This document shows, in pieces, positions 11,747 to 21,554 of a stretch of DNA of 22,893 nucleotides (positions are counted from its first letter, which is position 1; each line of letters opens with the position of its first letter). The notes beneath the pieces were generated by a model. That model did not search any database, was not told the DNA's origin, and saw only the letters and a program-made list of their open reading frames with translations. The position numbers and the translations under genes were made by a program. This DNA is from a virus. Location of the stretch: the IMG/VR virus record IMGVR_UViG_3300030503_000026, positions 1 through 22,893 of that record; one strand, written 5' to 3'.

Positions 11747-13150
11747 TTACCCAAAAAATGACCTACGGGGAATCATAACCTCAGAAAATGCTCTCGAACT
11801 TGCATCAACCTGATCGTCAAATGTGCCATTTGGAAACATTCTAAGCTCATTAATGTATTGTTCATTCCACGGTGCGCGAAGCATTAATACGTTTCCAACA
11901 TTAAGTTGAGCCGCGTATGGCTCTGCTCTAGTAACTTTATCGCCAGTTTCAGGCGAAGATTTTACATCATAACCGGACAATTCGCGTGTTAAATATATCA
12001 CCTGCGTCTTTCCAGCTTGTCCAGGGTCTTGCGGCATACTGATTTTAGTTTCGCGCATATCTCTATTGGCAGTATTTTTTATGGCCGCGTCGCGCTCATG
12101 TGTTTCGCATCGTATTCTTACCATATCTGCGATAATGAATCTGCCATCATCTAATCGACCTATCTTGGCTCCAGCGGTAAAGTCGCCATCCAGCGTCGCG
12201 GCAAAGTCCCATCCACGGCACCATTTAATCTTTCCTGATGGTATTGCATCAACAATCTGCAATTGATCTGGTTTAAATATTCCCCCTTCGCCTGGGGACG
12301 GTCTTTGTTGATATTGACCAGCAAAAACATATGGGTTTGCTTGCTCCATCCTGCGCAAATCTTCCAAAGTATGCTTTTCATCCCATAGTGCAGTGCCGTC
12401 AGCCTGAATAGCAGGAAAGCAAATATGCTCCCATTCTTCACCGTTCCCCTTTTCAAGCAACCATCCAGCTAAATCGGACTCGTGCAATCTTTGCATGATT
12501 AAAATGATAGGGGTTTGCTTAGGATCGTTTTTTCTACTTTCCAATGTTGTCTGAAACCAATCAAGAACCCCTTTACGAATCACATCAGATCGCGCTTCAC
12601 TGGCCTTATGTGGATCATCAATAATAATAGCCCCGCCGAATCCTTGGCGATGCTTGCCAGCACCAAACCCGGTCAACGTGCCACCAGTACCAGCAGAATA
12701 CATTACACCACCCTCTGTTGTCTTCCAATGAGCCTGTGCAGTGCCTAAGAACTTAACATTAGGAAATATCTCATTGTAAGCTTCGTGCATCATCATAAAC
12801 TTAGTATTGGCGCTGTTGTTGGCTGCTAAGTCTGATGAATAGCTAACATGAATAAATTCAGAATCAGGGCTTTTTCCCATAGCCCATGCTATGAAATTAA
12901 CAACAGCCAATTCCGTTTTTGAATATCTTGGAGGGACATTAATAATCAGACGCTTGCATTCACCCGTATATACGCGCATCAAAGCATCGCACATTATTTT
13001 ATGATGAAATGATTTTTGCCAGAGAAAGCCACGGCGCTGCAAAAACATCCACCGGCTAAAGAAGTATAAATCTTGTCTAGCAGTAATCGCAGCAGCTTCC
13101 CTGTCTTTCGGATCAGACCTCTTTAAGTAACTTGGCTGCTCGTTGCTCAT
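11747..13150 (-). CDS. terL: Terminase large subunit
   Basis: A 467-residue packaging motor. ATPase domain: Walker A-like NVPPRYSKTE at 71-80 and Walker B IIIDDP at 175-180. Nuclease domain: Asp315 in CRGWDFAATLDGD, Asp375 in MPQDPGQAGK and the acidic cluster TFDDQVDASS at 443-452, together the usual RNase H-like metal-binding set. The N-terminus (FFSRWMFLQRRGFLWQKSFH) matches the same family. It cuts concatemeric DNA and pumps it through the portal. Its ATG lies 38 bases inside the small subunit gene and is preceded by GGAAGAG, so translation is coupled. Confidence 0.95.
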   Translation of the reverse strand: MSNEQPSYLKRSDPKDREAAAITARQDLYFFSRWMFLQRRGFLWQKSFHHKIMCDALMRVYTGECKRLIINVPPRYSKTELAVVNFIAWAMGKSPDSEFIHVSYSSDLAANNSANTKFMMMHEAYNEIFPNVKFLGTAQAHWKTTEGGVMYSAGTGGTLTGFGAGKHRQGFGGAIIIDDPHKASEARSDVIRKGVLDWFQTTLESRKNDPKQTPIILIMQRLHESDLAGWLLEKGNGEEWEHICFPAIQADGTALWDEKHTLEDLRRMEQANPYVFAGQYQQRPSPGEGGIFKPDQLQIVDAIPSGKIKWCRGWDFAATLDGDFTAGAKIGRLDDGRFIIADMVRIRCETHERDAAIKNTANRDMRETKISMPQDPGQAGKTQVIYLTRELSGYDVKSSPETGDKVTRAEPYAAQLNVGNVLMLRAPWNEQYINELRMFPNGTFDDQVDASSRAFSEVMIPRRSFFG

Positions 13151-13772
13151 ACTCTTCCGGTGATTGACTGAAGTTATTATTGATAACTGCCTGAGTAGGA
13201 GCCTCTATTGTCGATAATCCGTACGCTTCACGCTCAAGACCAATTAGATTCTTAATAGTATCAGACAGTTTTTTCATTCCATCTATCCGGCCAGCACCTG
13301 AAATAATCTTGTGATACAGATCATTCATTCTGTCAATGCCATCTTTATTTTCTTTCCGCATCAATTCTCCGAACTCCTCGAACAACTGAGCATTAATAGT
13401 CTGACTTTCCAATTCCCTCATTAATTCCATCGCAAGCAATCTGGCTCGTTTAATATCCGTTCTATGTGCCATTCGAATATCAGCAATAACGCTTGCATTG
13501 GATTCTATCAGTATCCGTTCACTAGTAGCCACTTCTTTGGATACCAAAGCGGATACTTCCCGTTTGGATACCAATTCATCTGCCTTGGCCTTGATCTTTG
13601 CTTGAAGGTCTTTCACCCATCCGTCACGCTTGCAACGCTTATTGATTGCGCCATGTGTTATACCATGGGACTTTGCTATTTCCCTTACAGAAAGAAGTCC
13701 GGCGCGGTATTCAATCTCTATTCGCTCCCAATCTATTTTTTTGGCTTCTGGTTTATTTTCTGAGGAAGACAT
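13113..13772 (-). CDS. terS: Terminase small subunit
   Basis: A 219-residue protein. Residues 13-50 form a helix-turn-helix (DWERIEIEYRAGLLSVREIA, then SHGITHGAINKRCKRDGWVK), the DNA-recognition domain of small terminases. The centre is helical (oligomerisation), with ARLLAMELMRELESQTINAQ, and residues 160-185 contain GRIDGMKKLSDTIKNLIGLE, a block common in this class. It binds the packaging site and presents DNA to the large subunit, which it overlaps. The packaging site is probably within or near this gene, as in many phages, but is not identified here. Confidence 0.88.
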   Translation of the reverse strand: MSSSENKPEAKKIDWERIEIEYRAGLLSVREIAKSHGITHGAINKRCKRDGWVKDLQAKIKAKADELVSKREVSALVSKEVATSERILIESNASVIADIRMAHRTDIKRARLLAMELMRELESQTINAQLFEEFGELMRKENKDGIDRMNDLYHKIISGAGRIDGMKKLSDTIKNLIGLEREAYGLSTIEAPTQAVINNNFSQSPEEYEQRAAKLLKEV

Positions 13773-14325: not shown

Positions 14326-14616
14326 TCAAGCGAACATTGATAAACTGTCGTATTCTTCGTTATAAATCACGCCACATCGAACAAGATATAAAATATCGTC
14401 TTCAGTGGCGATTTCCGATAAAACTTCGCAATCAACGCCTAAATAAATTTCATCGTGCTCAGCAGCGCCGACAATATCTGAATTACCAGGAATTATTTTA
14501 TCTAACAATAAAAACGCGCATAAATCAGGCCTTTTGCTTGGTTTATTTTCAATTAAATCAAATTTATGATACTCGTCTTCAAACTTTAAAAATACTTCAC
14601 TTAAATTGATACTCAT
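14326..14616 (-). CDS. Conserved phage hypothetical protein
   Basis: A 96-residue protein (starts MSINLSEVFLKFEDEYHKFD) with the conserved segments PDLCAFLLLDKIIPG, AAEHDEIYLGVDCEVLSEIA and LYLVRCGVIYNEEYDSLSMF. The acidic EHDEI and RCGV blocks recur in small proteins of many proteobacterial phages, so this is a genuine family, but its role is unknown. A clear AGGAG precedes the ATG. Encoded between two tiny or hypothetical genes in the leftward set. Confidence 0.7.
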   Translation of the reverse strand: MSINLSEVFLKFEDEYHKFDLIENKPSKRPDLCAFLLLDKIIPGNSDIVGAAEHDEIYLGVDCEVLSEIATEDDILYLVRCGVIYNEEYDSLSMFA

Positions 14617-14699
14617 TTTAATCTCCTAGTAATTGTGTTAATCCCCTTGATCTGAGGAGCGAAAAGAATCTATCCCCAATGAAAGAGATAAAATATAAA

Positions 14700-14822
14700 T
14701 CATTTTTTATCGTTCAGTGAAAAGAATATTGCCATGGCCATGAAATAAATAGCATCAGGGATATACCCTAATGCATATACCAACGCACTAAAAATACACA
14801 GAAGCACCGATAATGTTTTCAT
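14700..14822 (-). CDS. 40-residue two-helix membrane protein
   Basis: Starts MKTLSVLLCIFSALVYALGY and ends AIFFSLNDKK. It has two hydrophobic segments (about residues 3-19 and 23-35) separated by IPD. The ATG overlaps the lipoprotein stop in a TAATG arrangement, so it is probably translated by coupling with that gene. Such pairs (lipoprotein plus small membrane protein) can act together at the envelope, for example in superinfection exclusion, but this is only a possibility. Confidence 0.55.
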   Translation of the reverse strand: MKTLSVLLCIFSALVYALGYIPDAIYFMAMAIFFSLNDKK

Positions 14823-15166
14823 TATTTGGATATTTCTACACTAGTCGCTTTACGGCCTGATGTACACCAGACTGACATTAGGCGTTCCTCATCGTAGTTT
14901 ATTTTTACAATTTCGCCATTTTCAGCCGCAGATTTTAAAATTTCAGCGTCGCCTTTATTAACGACAACCCAAATGTCTTGTGTTGACATTGAACCAACGC
15001 CATTGCGAATTACGCCCAGGCTAATATCTGCCTCAATGTAGTTTGGACAAAACAAGGGAGTATTTGTAATTACCTTTTTAACCTGCCCTACTAATTCAGC
15101 ATCACGAATTGAATATCCGCAAGCCGTTAATGATAATATTGACAAAATAATTAATAATTTCTTCAT
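14822..15166 (-). CDS. Phage lipoprotein of unknown function
   Basis: A 114-residue protein with a textbook lipoprotein signal: MKKLLIILSILSLTAC, with lipobox L-T-A-C (Cys16). The mature part begins GYSIRDAELVGQVKKVITNT and contains FCPNYIEADISLGVIRNGVG and a conserved STQDIWVVVN block, as in a group of small phage envelope proteins of unknown function. It is not proline-rich, so it is not an Rz1 spanin. The residue after Cys is Gly, so it is not marked for inner-membrane retention by Asp and could go to the outer membrane. A superinfection-exclusion role is conceivable. It is the first gene after the ribozyme-bearing RNA, with GGAGA as ribosome site. Confidence 0.75.
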   Translation of the reverse strand: MKKLLIILSILSLTACGYSIRDAELVGQVKKVITNTPLFCPNYIEADISLGVIRNGVGSMSTQDIWVVVNKGDAEILKSAAENGEIVKINYDEERLMSVWCTSGRKATSVEISK

Positions 15167-15186
15167 TGTATTCTCCAGTAAGTTTT

Positions 15187-15900
15187 AAATTGCATCGCCG
15201 GAATTGATCTGACAATTTACCGATTCGTGCCGATGCTCACTATGATTTTTCACGTAGCCATTTTACTGTGCTTCTGGTGTGAAATCATTGACCGTCTTTC
15301 CGATCTGCCAATCGCCCAACTGTTTCACCAGTATTTCTTCCTAACTCAATCCCGTGTTCCGCACCGGGAAAATGCCGTCGCATTTGTTAGTACCCCGAAT
15401 TATTCGGTCACCTGTTTAGGGATGCGCGATCGCAACCCATCAATTCATTGCTGTCTCTCCAGCTGTCAAGCCATGTGTCCCGTAAAACTTTTTTGGTCTT
15501 CGACCGGCTTTCCTTCGACCTACTGTTACGGCAGCGCGACTCTATCGGACTACAATCGCGGCAACAGCCTACATCCCTTTTCATCCTGAGGATGGTTACG
15601 GTGTAGTTCCGACGTTCATACGCTTTCGCGTTTCGCCTGAATTTCGCAGGCTCATCAGTGAACTTAATTTAGTGCCGTCTTTCCGGCCTGTCAGTTGATG
15701 TCTGGTACTGATCTCCAGCTTGTTAGATTCAGCGTCTATCTAACATGATTAAATTACCGACTCTGGTCTTCATTGCGAATCAGTCTTCGCATTCACCAAC
15801 ACGACTGAGGACTGCTACCGTCCCACAACGAGCGACCCGTGGGCAGTCGCATCTTGCAATCCTCATGCGTCTTGACCCTGATTTTTAAAGTATCAGGAAA
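15187..15900 (-). ncRNA. Large ornate structured RNA, about 700 nt, containing a hammerhead ribozyme
   Basis: The 755 bases between two genes have no credible frame, but the minus strand folds almost end to end into local hairpins. Stems seen (plus coordinates): 15877-15882/15892-15897; 15848-15852/15865-15869; 15810-15815/15843-15848 around 15823-15826/15839-15842; 15774-15779/15786-15791; 15721-15728/15738-15745 (8 bp); 15674-15677/15684-15687; 15582-15586/15590-15594; 15523-15527/15563-15567 around 15535-15539/15556-15560; 15495-15498/15502-15505; 15450-15453/15460-15463; 15395-15399/15403-15407; 15370-15375/15380-15385; 15350-15354/15365-15369; 15319-15322/15329-15332; and a 3' domain 15192-15197/15231-15236 around 15202-15206/15213-15217. 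The ends are approximate. It lies in the leftward operon. Giant RNAs of phages such as GOLLD and ROOL are the nearest known analogues in size and style; identity with either is not established. Confidence 0.82.
15614..15663 (-). ncRNA. Hammerhead ribozyme (type I topology)
   Basis: The minus strand carries every core element in order. Stem I 5' strand GUUCA (15663-15659); CUGAUGA (15658-15652); stem II GCCUG (15651-15647) with CAGGC (15639-15635) around CGAAAUU; GAAA (15634-15631); stem III CGC (15630-15628) with GCG (15623-15621) around a GAAA tetraloop; then U (15620), which pairs with the last A of GAAA, and A (15619) as the cleavage nucleotide; then stem I 3' strand UGAAC (15618-15614). 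Every stem is perfectly paired. Stem I is the open stem, so this is a type I hammerhead. Predicted cleavage is between 15619 and 15618, leaving a 2',3'-cyclic phosphate on the upstream RNA and a 5'-OH on the downstream one, which leads into the lipoprotein mRNA. Confidence 0.93.
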
Positions 15901-15921
15901 CTTATATAAATATATTACAAG

Positions 15922-16539
15922 TCAAAATTCTACCAAAACGCCATTTTTAACACAATAAAACACATCCGCTTTTATTCCATTAAATCCAACTTCTCCAACG
16001 CAAATTTTCATTGATCCCGAATTTTCATCATGCCAAGCTAATGCAAATGCACCTTTCAAGCCAGCTTTTGCGCGACCATTACATCCTGCAACCATTGATA
16101 CAGTTTTTTCTCCAATTGCTTCTGCCTTGCTGGAATAGCCGGATGACGCTGCAGTGCTGGAATTGCCGGATGACGCTGCAGTGCTGTAATCGCCGGATGA
16201 CGCTGCCTTGCTGTAATCGCCGGATGACGCTGCCTTGCTGTAATCGCCGGATGCAAAAATAGGCGAACCCTCTACGGCTTTCAGCGTCACGGCGATATCA
16301 GTTTCCTTTATCACTGCTGCGACATCGCCCTCAACGTATGAAGCGATATCACTAGGTGTTTTGATGAACTGCTCAAACACGTGAGATGTCAGCCAACGCG
16401 CATCGTCGTATCTTTTGTCTACACGCAGAGTTGAACCAACTTCATGCACATCGCCACCTTGAGGGAACTTTTGCAAAAACCATTTAAAGCCATTGCTGCA
16501 TGCGTCCCATTCTTTCAATAATTCTTTTGTAATTTTCAT
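15922..16539 (-). CDS. Phage protein with 9-residue tandem repeats
   Basis: A 205-residue protein. The N-terminal 95 residues (MKITKELLKEWDACSNGFKW) are a helical domain shared with other phage hypotheticals. Residues 96-140 are four to five copies of a 9-residue unit, SGDYSKAAS with variants SGDYSTAAS, SGNSSTAAS and SGYSSKAEA, and the repeat flavour fits a short beta-solenoid. The C-terminal part (GCNGRAKAGLKGAFALAWHD, then EVGFNGIKADVFYCVKNGVL) is beta-rich and recurs with such repeats in related proteins. The role is unknown. It has a strong GGAGA site and is the first gene after the leftward promoter. Confidence 0.72.
   Translation of the reverse strand: MKITKELLKEWDACSNGFKWFLQKFPQGGDVHEVGSTLRVDKRYDDARWLTSHVFEQFIKTPSDIASYVEGDVAAVIKETDIAVTLKAVEGSPIFASGDYSKAASSGDYSKAASSGDYSTAASSGNSSTAASSGYSSKAEAIGEKTVSMVAGCNGRAKAGLKGAFALAWHDENSGSMKICVGEVGFNGIKADVFYCVKNGVLVEF
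16138..16245 (-). repeat. 27-bp tandem repeat, four full copies
   Basis: Units start at 16138, 16165, 16192 and 16219, each with GCCGGATGACGCTG at the left edge on the plus strand; degenerate partial units flank both sides. The last two copies are identical, and the first two differ from them by a few bases, which suggests recent duplication. They encode the 9-residue SGDYSKAAS units, and copy number could vary by slippage. Confidence 0.9.
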
Positions 16540-16581
16540 ATATTCTCCGTGATTTAATTTAAAAATTCAAACAACGATCAA

Positions 16582-16610
16582 ATAATAATTCATTGATTAT
16601 TCATAGTCAA
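16582..16610 (-). promoter_or_regulatory. Leftward promoter, TTGACT - 17 - TATTAT
   Basis: On the minus strand: -35 TTGACT (16610-16605), 17-base spacer, -10 TATTAT (16587-16582). Transcription would start near 16575, about 35 bases before the repeat-protein ATG. It drives the repeat gene, the ribozyme RNA and probably the accessory genes beyond. The spacer shares ATAATCAAT with the promoter at 20646-20674, as well as TTGACTAT at its -35 end. Confidence 0.75.
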
Positions 16611-16631
16611 GGTGTATTTATCCTTTTATTG

Positions 16632-16660
16632 AAAAAAATCCGTGCCTTTTACAACACGGA
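16632..16660 (-). terminator. Intrinsic terminator-like hairpin, leftward orientation
   Basis: On the minus strand TCCGTG (16660-16655) pairs with CACGGA (16644-16639) around a 10-base loop and is followed by seven U (16638-16632). It would stop antisense transcription entering the leftward promoter from the early side, and so insulates the divergent promoters. Its 6-bp stem is moderate. Confidence 0.6.
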
Positions 16661-16718
16661 CAAATCGCTACTTTCGCAGCGCGGAGAATAACAGTTAAAC
16701 TATAACATAGAATACAGA

Positions 16719-16747
16719 TTGATTATATATATCAGCAGAGATATAAT
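16719..16747 (+). promoter_or_regulatory. Rightward early promoter, TTGATT - 17 - TATAAT
   Basis: -35 TTGATT (16719-16724), spacer of exactly 17, -10 TATAAT (16742-16747). Transcription would start near 16754, shortly before the AAGGAAG ribosome site and the ATG at 16776. An inverted repeat, TATATC (16728-16733) and GATATA (16740-16745) around AGCAGA, overlaps the -10 and may be an operator. Confidence 0.78.
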
Positions 16748-16775
16748 GAATTAATTATTTTTACAAAGGAAGAAT

Positions 16776-17216
16776 ATGAATGTCGCACAATGGCTAGAAT
16801 CCACCAATCCGGGACAAAAAGGAATTAGTCGAATTGAAAAGGCTAAGTTAGTTGAATTGCGTACGCGAGTATGTGATGAAGCTGAAGTTAGCATCAAAAC
16901 TCTAATTAACGGCAAATGTCGCGGCTCTGTCGTAAGTAGAAAAATAACTGAGCGATTAATCAAGGCTACTCGCAAGGATAAATTCAAAATCACTGAAGAC
17001 TCTATAGTACCGCATGAATATAAGCATGGATTTCGTGGAATCGCCTTACTTAGTTCTGGAAAATTCGCATCAAAGATTATAGATACGGAAGGAAGTCCAA
17101 TCCATCTGGGTATTTTTGATGATGCCAAAGGTGCCGCCCTTGCATTCGATAAAAAAGCCATTGAACTATTTGGCAAGAATGCGCTTACCAATAAAAAACT
17201 TGGATTGTTGGATTAA
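16776..17216 (+). CDS. AP2-domain DNA-binding protein
   Basis: A 146-residue protein. Residues 84-140 have the AP2/ERF-like pattern: FRGIALLSSGKFASKIIDTE, GSPIHLGIFDDAKGAALAFD, KKAIELFGKNA. The 'HLGIF-D-x-x-x-GAALAFD-KKAIELFGKNA' part is the helix of the fold; the first strands would touch DNA. The N-terminal half (MNVAQWLESTNPGQKGISRI to about residue 65) looks like a Cro/CI-type or other helical DNA-binding domain. Phage AP2 proteins are often linked to homing HNH nucleases, but no nuclease domain is visible here, so it may be a regulator. As the first gene of the rightward transcript it could bind the divergent promoter region. Confidence 0.78.
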   Translation: MNVAQWLESTNPGQKGISRIEKAKLVELRTRVCDEAEVSIKTLINGKCRGSVVSRKITERLIKATRKDKFKITEDSIVPHEYKHGFRGIALLSSGKFASKIIDTEGSPIHLGIFDDAKGAALAFDKKAIELFGKNALTNKKLGLLD

Positions 17217-20645: not shown

Positions 20646-20674
20646 TTGACTATCCATAATCAATCAGTAATAAT
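20646..20674 (+). promoter_or_regulatory. Promoter before the Cys-repeat gene, TTGACT - 17 - AATAAT
   Basis: -35 TTGACT (20646-20651), 17-base spacer, -10 AATAAT (20669-20674), predicted start near 20681. Spacer segments TTGACTAT and ATAATCAAT are identical, in the same phase, to the leftward promoter at 16582-16610. Confidence 0.68.
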
Positions 20675-20705
20675 GAACCATCGAACAAACAAACAGGAGA
20701 ATGAA

Positions 20706-21554
20706 ATGAAATTCGAATCAATAAAAACATCAAAAGGCAACACCGGATTCAGCCTTGAATCACAGGAAAAAGCTAACGAACAAGCTGCCAAGATGGACGC
20801 GAATAACAATACGAATTGTTATAATTGCCGCTATTGCAGCGGTTGCAGCGATTGCAGCGGTTGCAGCAGTTGCATCGGTTGCAGCAGTTGCAGCGATTGC
20901 AGCGGTTGCCGCTATTGCAGAGGTTGCAGCAGTTGCATCGGTTGCAGCGATTGCAGCGATTGCAGCGGTTGCCGCTATTGCAGAGGTTGCAGCGGTTGCA
21001 GCGGTTGCAGCAGTTGCATCGGTTGCAGCAGTTGCATCGGTTGCAGCAGTTGCAGCGGTTGCAGCGGTTGCATCGGTTGCAGCAGTTGCAGCGATTGCAG
21101 CGGTTGCAGCAGTTGCATCGGTTGCAGCGATTGCAGCGATTGCAGCGGTTGCCGCTATTGCAGCGGTTGCAGCGGTTGCAGCGATTGCAGCGATTGCAGC
21201 GATTGCAGCGGTTGCATCGGTTGCAGCGATTGCAGCGACAAAAAAGAAACTCCGGTCAAAATTCCAGTGATTGAGCAGATTGATCAGGCTGTTTATGCTG
21301 CTGTCACTGCTGCGCCAGATGCATTGAATATGTCTAAATGGCATGTTTGTGATACCACGCATTGCCGAGCCGGATGGGTTGTACATTTGGCTGGCGAAGA
21401 AGGATATGCGCTTCAAAAATTCTTTAACTCAACCGCATTGGCCGCACAGTTGATTTATCGTGAAAGTAGATCACCAATCAACCCATGCAGATTTTTTGAT
21501 TCAAATGAAAATGCTTTAGCTGATATGAAGCAGAGTGCTGAAATTAATAAATAA
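20706..21554 (+). CDS. Cys-x-x triplet repeat protein with a conserved C-terminal domain
   Basis: I start at the ATG at 20706 (MKFESIKTSKGNTGFSLESQ) because AGGAGA precedes it; a further upstream frame begins in the promoter. The 282 residues have an N-terminal 37-residue head, then residues 38-178 made only of Cys-x-x triplets, 47 in a row (CSG, CSD, CSS, CIG, CRY, CRG, plus an initial CYN), and a C-terminal domain (residues 180-282) with AVYAAVTAAPDALNMSKWHV, CDTTHCRAGWVVHLAGEEGY and LIYRESRSPINPCRFFDSNE, shared by many phage proteins with unrelated repeats. The repeats could fold as a Cys-lined solenoid or bind metal. Function is unknown. Confidence 0.8.
   Translation: MKFESIKTSKGNTGFSLESQEKANEQAAKMDANNNTNCYNCRYCSGCSDCSGCSSCIGCSSCSDCSGCRYCRGCSSCIGCSDCSDCSGCRYCRGCSGCSGCSSCIGCSSCIGCSSCSGCSGCIGCSSCSDCSGCSSCIGCSDCSDCSGCRYCSGCSGCSDCSDCSDCSGCIGCSDCSDKKETPVKIPVIEQIDQAVYAAVTAAPDALNMSKWHVCDTTHCRAGWVVHLAGEEGYALQKFFNSTALAAQLIYRESRSPINPCRFFDSNENALADMKQSAEINK
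20817..21239 (+). repeat. 9-bp degenerate tandem repeat, 47 copies, coding for Cys-x-x
   Basis: A continuous array of 9-bp units of the kind TGCAGCGGT, TGCAGCGAT, TGCAGCAGT, TGCATCGGT and TGCCGCTAT, all in frame. Nearly every Cys codon is TGC. Larger blocks recur, for instance SCIGCSDCSDCSGCRYC at two places. Copy number variation by slippage is likely. Confidence 0.93.

What the first reader, a model, noticed from the sequence alone, without database searches (positions are those of the whole stretch)
15187..15900. A roughly 700-nt ornate non-coding RNA with a ribozyme at its centre
At least 15 local stems, most perfect, cover nearly the whole gene-free interval on one strand, and the coding potential is poor. 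Size, density of hairpins and phage context recall GOLLD and ROOL, giant phage/prophage RNAs, which are known to assemble into multimers. I do not see an obvious match and cannot rule one out. The embedded self-cleaving ribozyme would produce two defined halves, or release the mature RNA from the mRNA. This is the best candidate for an undescribed system in the window.
Basis: partly seen in the sequence, partly recalled or inferred. Interest (0 to 1): 0.93.

Follow-up and report, generated by a model that had tools for sequence, protein, structure and literature searches.

The report
Modular tRNA-shaped phage RNA with ribozyme
The gene-free stretch encodes a structured phage RNA built from interchangeable parts, namely a tRNA-shaped module whose two loops kiss and which carries a different insert in almost every copy, a capped stem, a marker hairpin and a self-cleaving hammerhead ribozyme; the parts recur in hundreds of unrelated phages, yet apart from a sibling called STnc100 I found no description of them.

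Summary
In detail: 15187-15900 is gene-free and folds better than chance on the minus strand (z -4.5; plus strand -2.0), with no Rfam match at threshold. It is not GOLLD or ROOL. The 5' part (15900-15614) is a chain of modules found across proteobacterial phages. A is a covarying stem with a variable cap. B is tRNA-shaped: acceptor-like helix, D-arm-like and T-arm-like hairpins whose loops kiss, and a hypervariable insert where the anticodon arm would be. C is TGACA plus a GGAAAGAC-loop hairpin. A complete hammerhead follows C at 15663-15614; it also follows C in five other phage contigs (three further distinct sequences), and another lies in the tRNA cluster of phage ZC03. B covaries strongly (97.8% of cells paired against 87.7% shuffled). 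It occurs in some 200 annotated phage records, including P1, HK620, D3, PY54 and BASEL phages, in late-operon leaders or tRNA clusters. 153 copies carry 101 unrelated insert families. The 3' part (15613-15187) has no detectable homologue. Best reading: a late-leader RNA cut by its hammerhead and probably by tRNA-processing enzymes into small RNAs that share a scaffold and display fast-changing payloads. Cleavage, processing and function are inferred.

The parts
15187..15921 (-). Gene-free interval, taken as the non-coding RNA region at the start of the late (structural) operon
   Evidence: No minus-strand ORF; fold z -4.47 on the minus strand; terminase small and large subunits lie downstream on the same strand
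15877..15897 (-). 5' hairpin CCTGAT-loop-ATCAGG
   Evidence: In the minimum-energy and centroid folds; no homologues examined
15797..15874 (-). Module A: stem CAAGACGCATGAGGATTGC / GCAGTCCTCAGTCGTGTTG with a 40-nt variable apical insert (15816-15855)
   Evidence: 153 A modules pair at 145-151 of 153 at each of 8 positions; seven variable positions pair in 105-144 cases when shuffled, with GC, AU, CG and UA exchanges; window coordinates checked
15694..15800 (-). Module B, tRNA-shaped: acceptor-like GTTGGTG/CATCAAC, AA linker, D-arm-like TGCGA-AGACTGAT-TCGCA (15791-15774), variable insert (15773-15720), T-arm-like GCTGG-AGATCAGTA-CCAGA (15719-15701); loops kiss ACTGAT/ATCAGT
   Evidence: 40-sequence covariation count: 97.8% of cells paired, 11 double-changed pairs, 0/500 shuffles; kissing pair in the set anchored outside the loops G-C 35, A-T 26, G-T 22, A-C 1
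15674..15693 (-). Module C: TGACA followed by hairpin GCC-GGAAAGAC-GGC
   Evidence: 45 of 142 GGAAAGAC sites in the fetched loci have perfect 4-bp flanks (22 different stems), 0-2 for each of six control words; 29 of the 45 are preceded by TGACA or TGACG
15614..15663 (-). Hammerhead ribozyme, stem I open: stem I GTTCA/TGAAC, stem II CCTG/CAGG, stem III ACGC-GAAA-GCGT; predicted cleavage after A15619, between 15619 and 15618
   Evidence: Core identical in window, L155 (= L240, L243), L162 and L165, with the stem sequences differing among the four; folds as expected; Rfam Hammerhead_3 21.8 bits, below the gathering score 48.5
15290..15305 (-). Second C hairpin GATC-GGAAAGAC-GGTC, preceded by TTGGCA
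   Evidence: Found; same loop and stem rule as
15187..15613 (-). 3' segment: about ten further predicted stems
   Evidence: Single-sequence folds only; no homologue in the fetched loci or the plasmid collection
11747..13772 (-). Downstream late genes: terminase small (13113-13772) and large (11747-13150) subunits
   Evidence: PHROGs terminase families, E 3.9e-66 and 1.1e-100

Best explanation
The interval is a non-coding leader RNA at the head of the phage's late operon, read on the minus strand. Its 5' part is made of interchangeable RNA modules shared across proteobacterial phages. Shown by comparison: (1) module A is a real stem with a variable cap; (2) module B is a tRNA-shaped fold in which D-like and T-like loops pair with each other and a hypervariable insert replaces the anticodon arm; (3) module C is a conserved-loop hairpin that often opens a new unit; (4) the hammerhead has an intact, conserved core and sits repeatedly just after C. 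Inferred: the hammerhead cuts the nascent RNA after A15619; the tRNA-shaped modules are recognised and trimmed by tRNA-processing enzymes, as are the tRNAs they lie among in other phages; the products are stable small RNAs with one constant scaffold and different payloads. The payloads probably act in trans on host factors or RNAs and change fast under that conflict. How the payload acts is not shown.
For: Covariation of B, of its kissing loops in a set selected without reference to either loop, of A and of C. tRNA likeness: B lies inside tRNA clusters of Pseudomonas phages ZC03 (between tRNA-Arg and tRNA-Leu) and D3 (between tRNA-Met and tRNA-Gly). In L197 the same slot holds a body with the same GTTGGTG/CACCAAC helix, a D arm ACTCAGTTGGTAGAGT and a canonical T arm GCTGGTTCGAATCCAGC. 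Hypervariable inserts: 153 copies, 124 distinct inserts, 101 unrelated families, although the framework is 87% identical. Hammerheads: four distinct sequences directly after C in six phage contigs, plus one in the ZC03 tRNA cluster. Leader position: window, and terminase genes downstream in many loci; HK620, PAJU2 and PY54 near Q or before the lysis genes. Precedent: the region between PR' and tR' of Stx phages gives a stable processed Hfq-binding RNA, StxS (PMC7873438); STnc100, which shares B's layout in L146 and L150 by inspection, was confirmed by Northern blot (PMC5331693).
Against: No expression, cleavage or processing data for the window. B's acceptor-like helix is longer than 7 bp in many copies and CCA is not encoded (the next four nt are mostly AACC or AACT). 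Inserts fold only weakly better than shuffles (mean z -0.45, no better than their antisense), so a folded payload is not established. Some arrays lie away from late genes or on another strand than a neighbour. A and B share the strand GTTGG, so the two helices cannot both be complete at once. The hammerhead is below the Rfam threshold.
Confidence: 0.55

Rival explanations
1. Cis-acting leader: the folded array protects the late transcript, blocking Rho and nucleases or helping antitermination, and the hammerhead trims the leader off the mRNA. Inserts are spacers and vary because they are neutral.
For: Late-leader position in the window, HK620, PAJU2 and PY54; inserts weakly folded and unrelated; phage hammerheads have been proposed to cut long transcripts into gene-length mRNAs (PMC3088659).
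Against: B also lies in tRNA clusters (ZC03, D3), beside tRNAs in P1, and in N4-like and Taipeivirus ncRNA regions. Such detailed tertiary conservation is more than a neutral spacer needs.
Confidence: 0.25
2. Decoy: tRNA-shaped modules soak up a host defence factor or nuclease that acts on tRNAs or structured RNA.
For: tRNA shape with no anticodon arm; tRNA-cluster context; rapid turnover of the exposed insert. RNA mimicry of a defence RNA by a phage is known for ToxIN (PMC3475682, title and abstract only).
Against: No defence partner identified; inserts share no motif.
Confidence: 0.2
3. Large RNA cage of the GOLLD/ROOL kind that forms multimers through the kissing loops.
For: Size, phage origin, tRNA-island context and kissing loops are alike (PMC12286853).
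Against: No Rfam match; module B occurs as a single stand-alone unit in EcP1 and PSTRCR_117lys; the kissing partners lie in one module and covary as an intramolecular pair would.
Confidence: 0.05
4. Chance structure in a gene-poor stretch.
For: 3' half without homologues and with modest z.
Against: Covariation and hundreds of homologues for the 5' part.
Confidence: 0.02

Closest known systems
STnc100 (RF02076) and PasD, prophage small RNAs
   Same: STnc100 matches in L146 (47.0 bits, at threshold) and P1 (33.9, below it) share B's layout by inspection: GGTGAA start, short D-like hairpin, long insert, hairpin abutting the closing strand. Also found in lambdoid phages.
   Different: Different loops, with no kissing pairs seen; Rfam's model does not find B in the window or in the other loci scanned.
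GOLLD and ROOL RNAs
   Same: Large phage RNAs of unknown function near tRNA islands, with kissing loops (PMC12286853)
   Different: No sequence or structure match; modular and mosaic, not one fixed fold; carries a hammerhead
tmRNA and bacterial Y RNA (YrlA), tRNA mimics
   Same: Acceptor-like and T-arm-like parts, with a large domain in place of the anticodon arm (tmRNA); YrlA in phages is from my own knowledge
   Different: No gathering-level match; D and T loops pair by Watson-Crick kissing instead of the usual tRNA elbow; no tag frame seen in the window
Prophage hammerhead ribozymes (Perreault 2011, PMC3088659)
   Same: Hammerheads in phage intergenic regions (e.g. PaP3), sometimes several per transcript
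   Different: Here directly after a marker hairpin inside a chain of tRNA-shaped modules, a setting I found no description of

Membership tests
GOLLD / ROOL / OLE / HEARO / RAGATH (Rfam) | Covariance-model match at gathering score | tested here: not met
   0 matches to any Rfam family at gathering in the window; none of these at E up to 5 in 14600-16800
GOLLD / ROOL | Homo-multimeric cage | not testable with these tools
   Needs native gel or cryo-EM
Hammerhead ribozyme | Core CUGAUGA..GAAA, A15.1-U16.1, H17, three stems | tested here: met
   four distinct sequences keep the core, stems differ
Hammerhead ribozyme | Rfam gathering score | tested here: not met
   21.8 against 48.5 bits; L155 21.8 against 52; ZC03 21.2 against 48.5. 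Threshold missed although the core is intact
Hammerhead ribozyme | Self-cleavage | not testable with these tools
   Needs in vitro transcription
tRNA | Found by ARAGORN or by the Rfam tRNA model | tested here: not met
   0 in the window; neighbouring true tRNAs are found, B is not
tRNA | Order of parts: acceptor helix, 2-nt linker, D arm, 5-bp T arm abutting the acceptor 3' strand | tested here: met
   104 of 162 anchor sites have the abutting 5-bp hairpin, 100 of them with the TCAG kissing loop; covariation. A tRNA's anticodon arm and 7-nt T loop are absent
STnc100 (RF02076) | Covariance-model match at gathering score | tested here: not met
   No STnc100 hit in the window or in L002-L004; the hits in L146/L150 lie on a different unit from B
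tmRNA | Tag reading frame plus tRNA-like domain | tested here: not met
   No tmRNA match in the window; tag-like frames occur beside B in other phages
YrlA bacterial Y RNA (RF02553) | Covariance-model match | tested here: not met
   No model match in the window at gathering
YrlA bacterial Y RNA (RF02553) | Ro60-type partner gene nearby | not tested
   Only 16 window proteins were scanned; the whole genome is not held

The most novel reading that the evidence does not exclude
Phages of Pseudomonadota share a combinatorial RNA system: constant scaffolds (A, kissing tRNA-like B, marker C) carry interchangeable, fast-evolving RNA payloads, arranged in arrays cut by tRNA-processing enzymes and by built-in hammerheads, and used in trans against or inside the host.
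Probability: 0.35. Interest if true: 0.95.

Novelty: new variant of a known kind. Interest (0 to 1): 0.85.

Why it matters
The module is present in classic laboratory phages (P1, HK620, D3, PY54, BASEL Bas77-80), and the HK620-type late leader in 156 of 5,426 complete E. coli genomes (megablast, so a lower bound for the family), yet it has no Rfam family and lay in unannotated or probably mis-annotated stretches in the phage records I looked at. It gives a concrete, testable class of tRNA-mimicking phage RNAs with a constant frame and hypervariable payloads, and a new setting for phage hammerheads. It could help to explain gene-free regions of up to 3.3 kb in phages.

Tried and rejected
GOLLD/ROOL/other Rfam families: no match. 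The Plastid-ycf2 hit (19.6 bits, gathering 65.7) is chance. Finding close relatives of the window array through the neighbouring 114-aa protein (no relative) or terminase small subunit (one identical contig, L247, that stops before the array). Homologues of the 3' segment: none in fetched loci or plasmids. Terminators soon after B: 12 of 148 against 7 of 740 background by a crude scan, so only a minority. Insert reuse as a sign of shared payloads: small, 21 of 101 families have more than one distinct member. My first kissing-loop count used a wrong pattern and was replaced. The idea of a single fixed ornate fold was dropped. Literature: no paper found describing the module in ten searches of an open-access library, which misses most subscription journals.

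Full report
What is there. The window is a 22.9-kb fragment of a tailed phage. Late genes run on the minus strand to the left (terminase small and large subunits, portal, head protease); replication genes run on the plus strand to the right (NinB, DnaB-like helicase). Between them, before the late genes, lies the gene-free stretch 15167-15921. On the minus strand 15187-15900 folds at -231.6 kcal/mol, z -4.47; the plus strand has z -2.02. No Rfam family matches at its gathering score. With a lax threshold only a sub-threshold hammerhead and a chance plastid hit appear.

The way in. A sensitive DNA search of annotated phages gave only short matches, but most of them fell in gene-free DNA: Iodobacter phage phiPLPE, Enterobacter phage EcP1 and Providencia phage PSTRCR_117lys. 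They share two hairpins whose loops are complementary. Two later DNA searches with framework sequences found 170 and 215 annotated phage records at E up to 1, mostly Klebsiella, Pseudomonas and Escherichia phages; a few of the weakest are probably chance. 296 plasmid records also match, many perhaps P1-like phage-plasmids, which I did not check one by one.

Module A. The arms CAACACGCATGGGGATTG and CAGTCCCCAGCCGTGTTG enclose a variable insert. In 153 such stems, eight neighbouring positions pair in 145-151 cases; after shuffling, the seven variable positions pair in 105-144. Exchanges such as GGGG/CCCC, GAGG/CCTC, GGAG/CTCC and GGCG/CGCC are compensatory. In the window A is 15874-15797.

Module B. 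GTTGGTG-AA-[hairpin with loop AGRCTGAT]-insert-[5-bp hairpin with loop AGATCAGYA]-CACCAAC. The order of parts and the abutting 5-bp hairpin are those of a tRNA: acceptor, two linker bases, D arm, T arm stacked on the acceptor. The insert stands where the anticodon arm would be. On 40 distinct frameworks, 97.8% of cells pair (shuffled 87.7%), 11 pairs have changes on both sides, and no shuffle of 500 reaches any measure; sliding the partner destroys the signal. The kissing helix has one strongly covarying pair: G-C 22, A-U 13, G-U 4, other 1. In loci picked mainly by an anchor upstream of both loops the same pair is G-C 35, A-T 26, G-T 22, A-C 1. Caveats: the framework set required at least 4 of 5 stem pairs, 5 of 7 acceptor pairs and parts of the loops, so the cells-paired figure is inflated; the covarying kissing pair was left free. 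I chose the 40 by eye for diversity.

Why tRNA-shaped is more than a likeness. In Pseudomonas phage ZC03, B sits in a row of tRNA genes, between tRNA-Arg and tRNA-Leu; in D3 it sits between tRNA-Met and tRNA-Gly. In P1 and KP591P1 it is beside tRNAs. In L197 the slot of B, with the identical GTTGGTG/CACCAAC helix, holds a body with a D arm and a canonical T arm. ARAGORN and the Rfam tRNA model do not recognise B itself, so it is not filed as a tRNA.

Module C and the hammerhead. GGAAAGAC occurs 142 times in the fetched loci with distinct context; 45 have perfect 4-bp flanks with 22 different stems, while six control words give 0-2 each. 29 of the 45 are preceded by TGACA or TGACG. In the window C (15693-15674) is followed after 10 nt by a hammerhead, 15663-15614. 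Searches for C followed by a hammerhead core found L155, L162, L165, L240 and L243; L155, L240 and L243 share one ribozyme sequence. The four distinct sequences keep the core and differ in their stems. A pairing-based scan of all loci found one more in the tRNA cluster of ZC03 and two outside arrays (L198, L244). Most of these loci were collected by the hammerhead pattern, so the count does not measure frequency. Rfam scores stay below threshold for the window, L155 and ZC03. Hammerheads in phage intergenic regions and in series along prophage transcripts are known (PMC3088659).

Inserts. 153 B copies hold 124 distinct inserts that fall into 101 families with no detectable similarity between them, median 63 nt, while the framework is 87% identical. 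Their folding is only slightly better than shuffled and not better than antisense. The window's insert has no relative in the set.

Where the arrays lie. Of 20 downstream proteins tested from 20 loci, 10 match terminase subunits; others are head, connector, replication or methyltransferase proteins; the choice was by hand and favoured the longest frame downstream. In HK620 B lies after the pR' promoter and just before the annotated terminator tQ, in PAJU2 after Q, in PY54 before the lysis genes. The corresponding region of Stx phages is transcribed in lysogens and processed to the Hfq-binding RNA StxS (PMC7873438). The median gene-free gap is 624 nt by a crude ORF rule; gaps of 2.1 and 3.3 kb occur in IME11 and UPM2146.

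Relation to known RNAs. STnc100 (RF02076) reaches its threshold on a different unit in UPM2146 and partly matches in P1. By eye these units have B's order of parts with other loops. STnc100 was seen by Northern blot in EHEC (PMC5331693) and is proposed to share ancestry with PasD (PMC13192938). I take B as a sibling of this layout, by inspection only, not by a profile test.

Mechanism, graded. Shown by comparison: A, B with its kissing loops, C, hammerhead core, tRNA-cluster and leader contexts. Inferred from known chemistry: cleavage after A15619. Inferred from context: processing by tRNA enzymes. Conjecture: payloads act in trans. The strand GTTGG is used by both A and B, so one helix must give way; this could be a switch between precursor and processed form, or simply partial pairing.

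Limits. The 3' segment 15613-15187 has no homologues found and stays a single-sequence prediction apart from its C hairpin. No transcript data exist for the window. The literature search covered open-access papers only, so an earlier description of B cannot be ruled out.

Noticed in passing
L149 (HK620) 2285, L152 (KP591P1) 2273, L248 (Klebsiella phage 6991) 1781, L145 (Bas80) 2312, L148 (IME11) 2307, L146 (UPM2146) 2313, L150 (P1) 2362: tmRNA-like tag frames with a conserved upstream stretch beside modules A/B: ANEEMYLAVA*, ANDDVVLMAA*, ANDNTFLAVA*, ANDDLMMVAA* (P1). Rfam tmRNA_permuted scores 26-33 bits in L145, L148 and L150 (gathering 47). Some endings differ from the usual LAA.
   Followed up: partly
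L146 1400-4700 and L148 1472-3558: Gene-free regions of 3.3 and 2.1 kb made of successive structured units closed by long inverted arms, mixed with tRNAs and degenerate tRNA-like bodies.
   Followed up: partly
L245 2134-2190 (Pseudomonas phage ZC03; also ZC08): Hammerhead ribozyme inside a tRNA gene cluster that, in ZC03, also holds module B.
   Followed up: partly
L248 1985-2101 and similar Klebsiella and Escherichia phage records: Short 'hypothetical proteins' annotated antisense over module B; probably spurious genes.
   Followed up: no
window 20646-21554 (+): 302-aa ORF with a long cysteine-rich CSxCSGC repeat, no Pfam match.
   Followed up: no
window 15922-16539 (-): 205-aa ORF with tandem KAASSGDYS repeats just upstream of the RNA; matches PHROGs of unknown function.
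   Followed up: no
L197 4030 ff (-): tRNA-like body with D and T arms and an oversized middle in the slot of module B.
   Followed up: no
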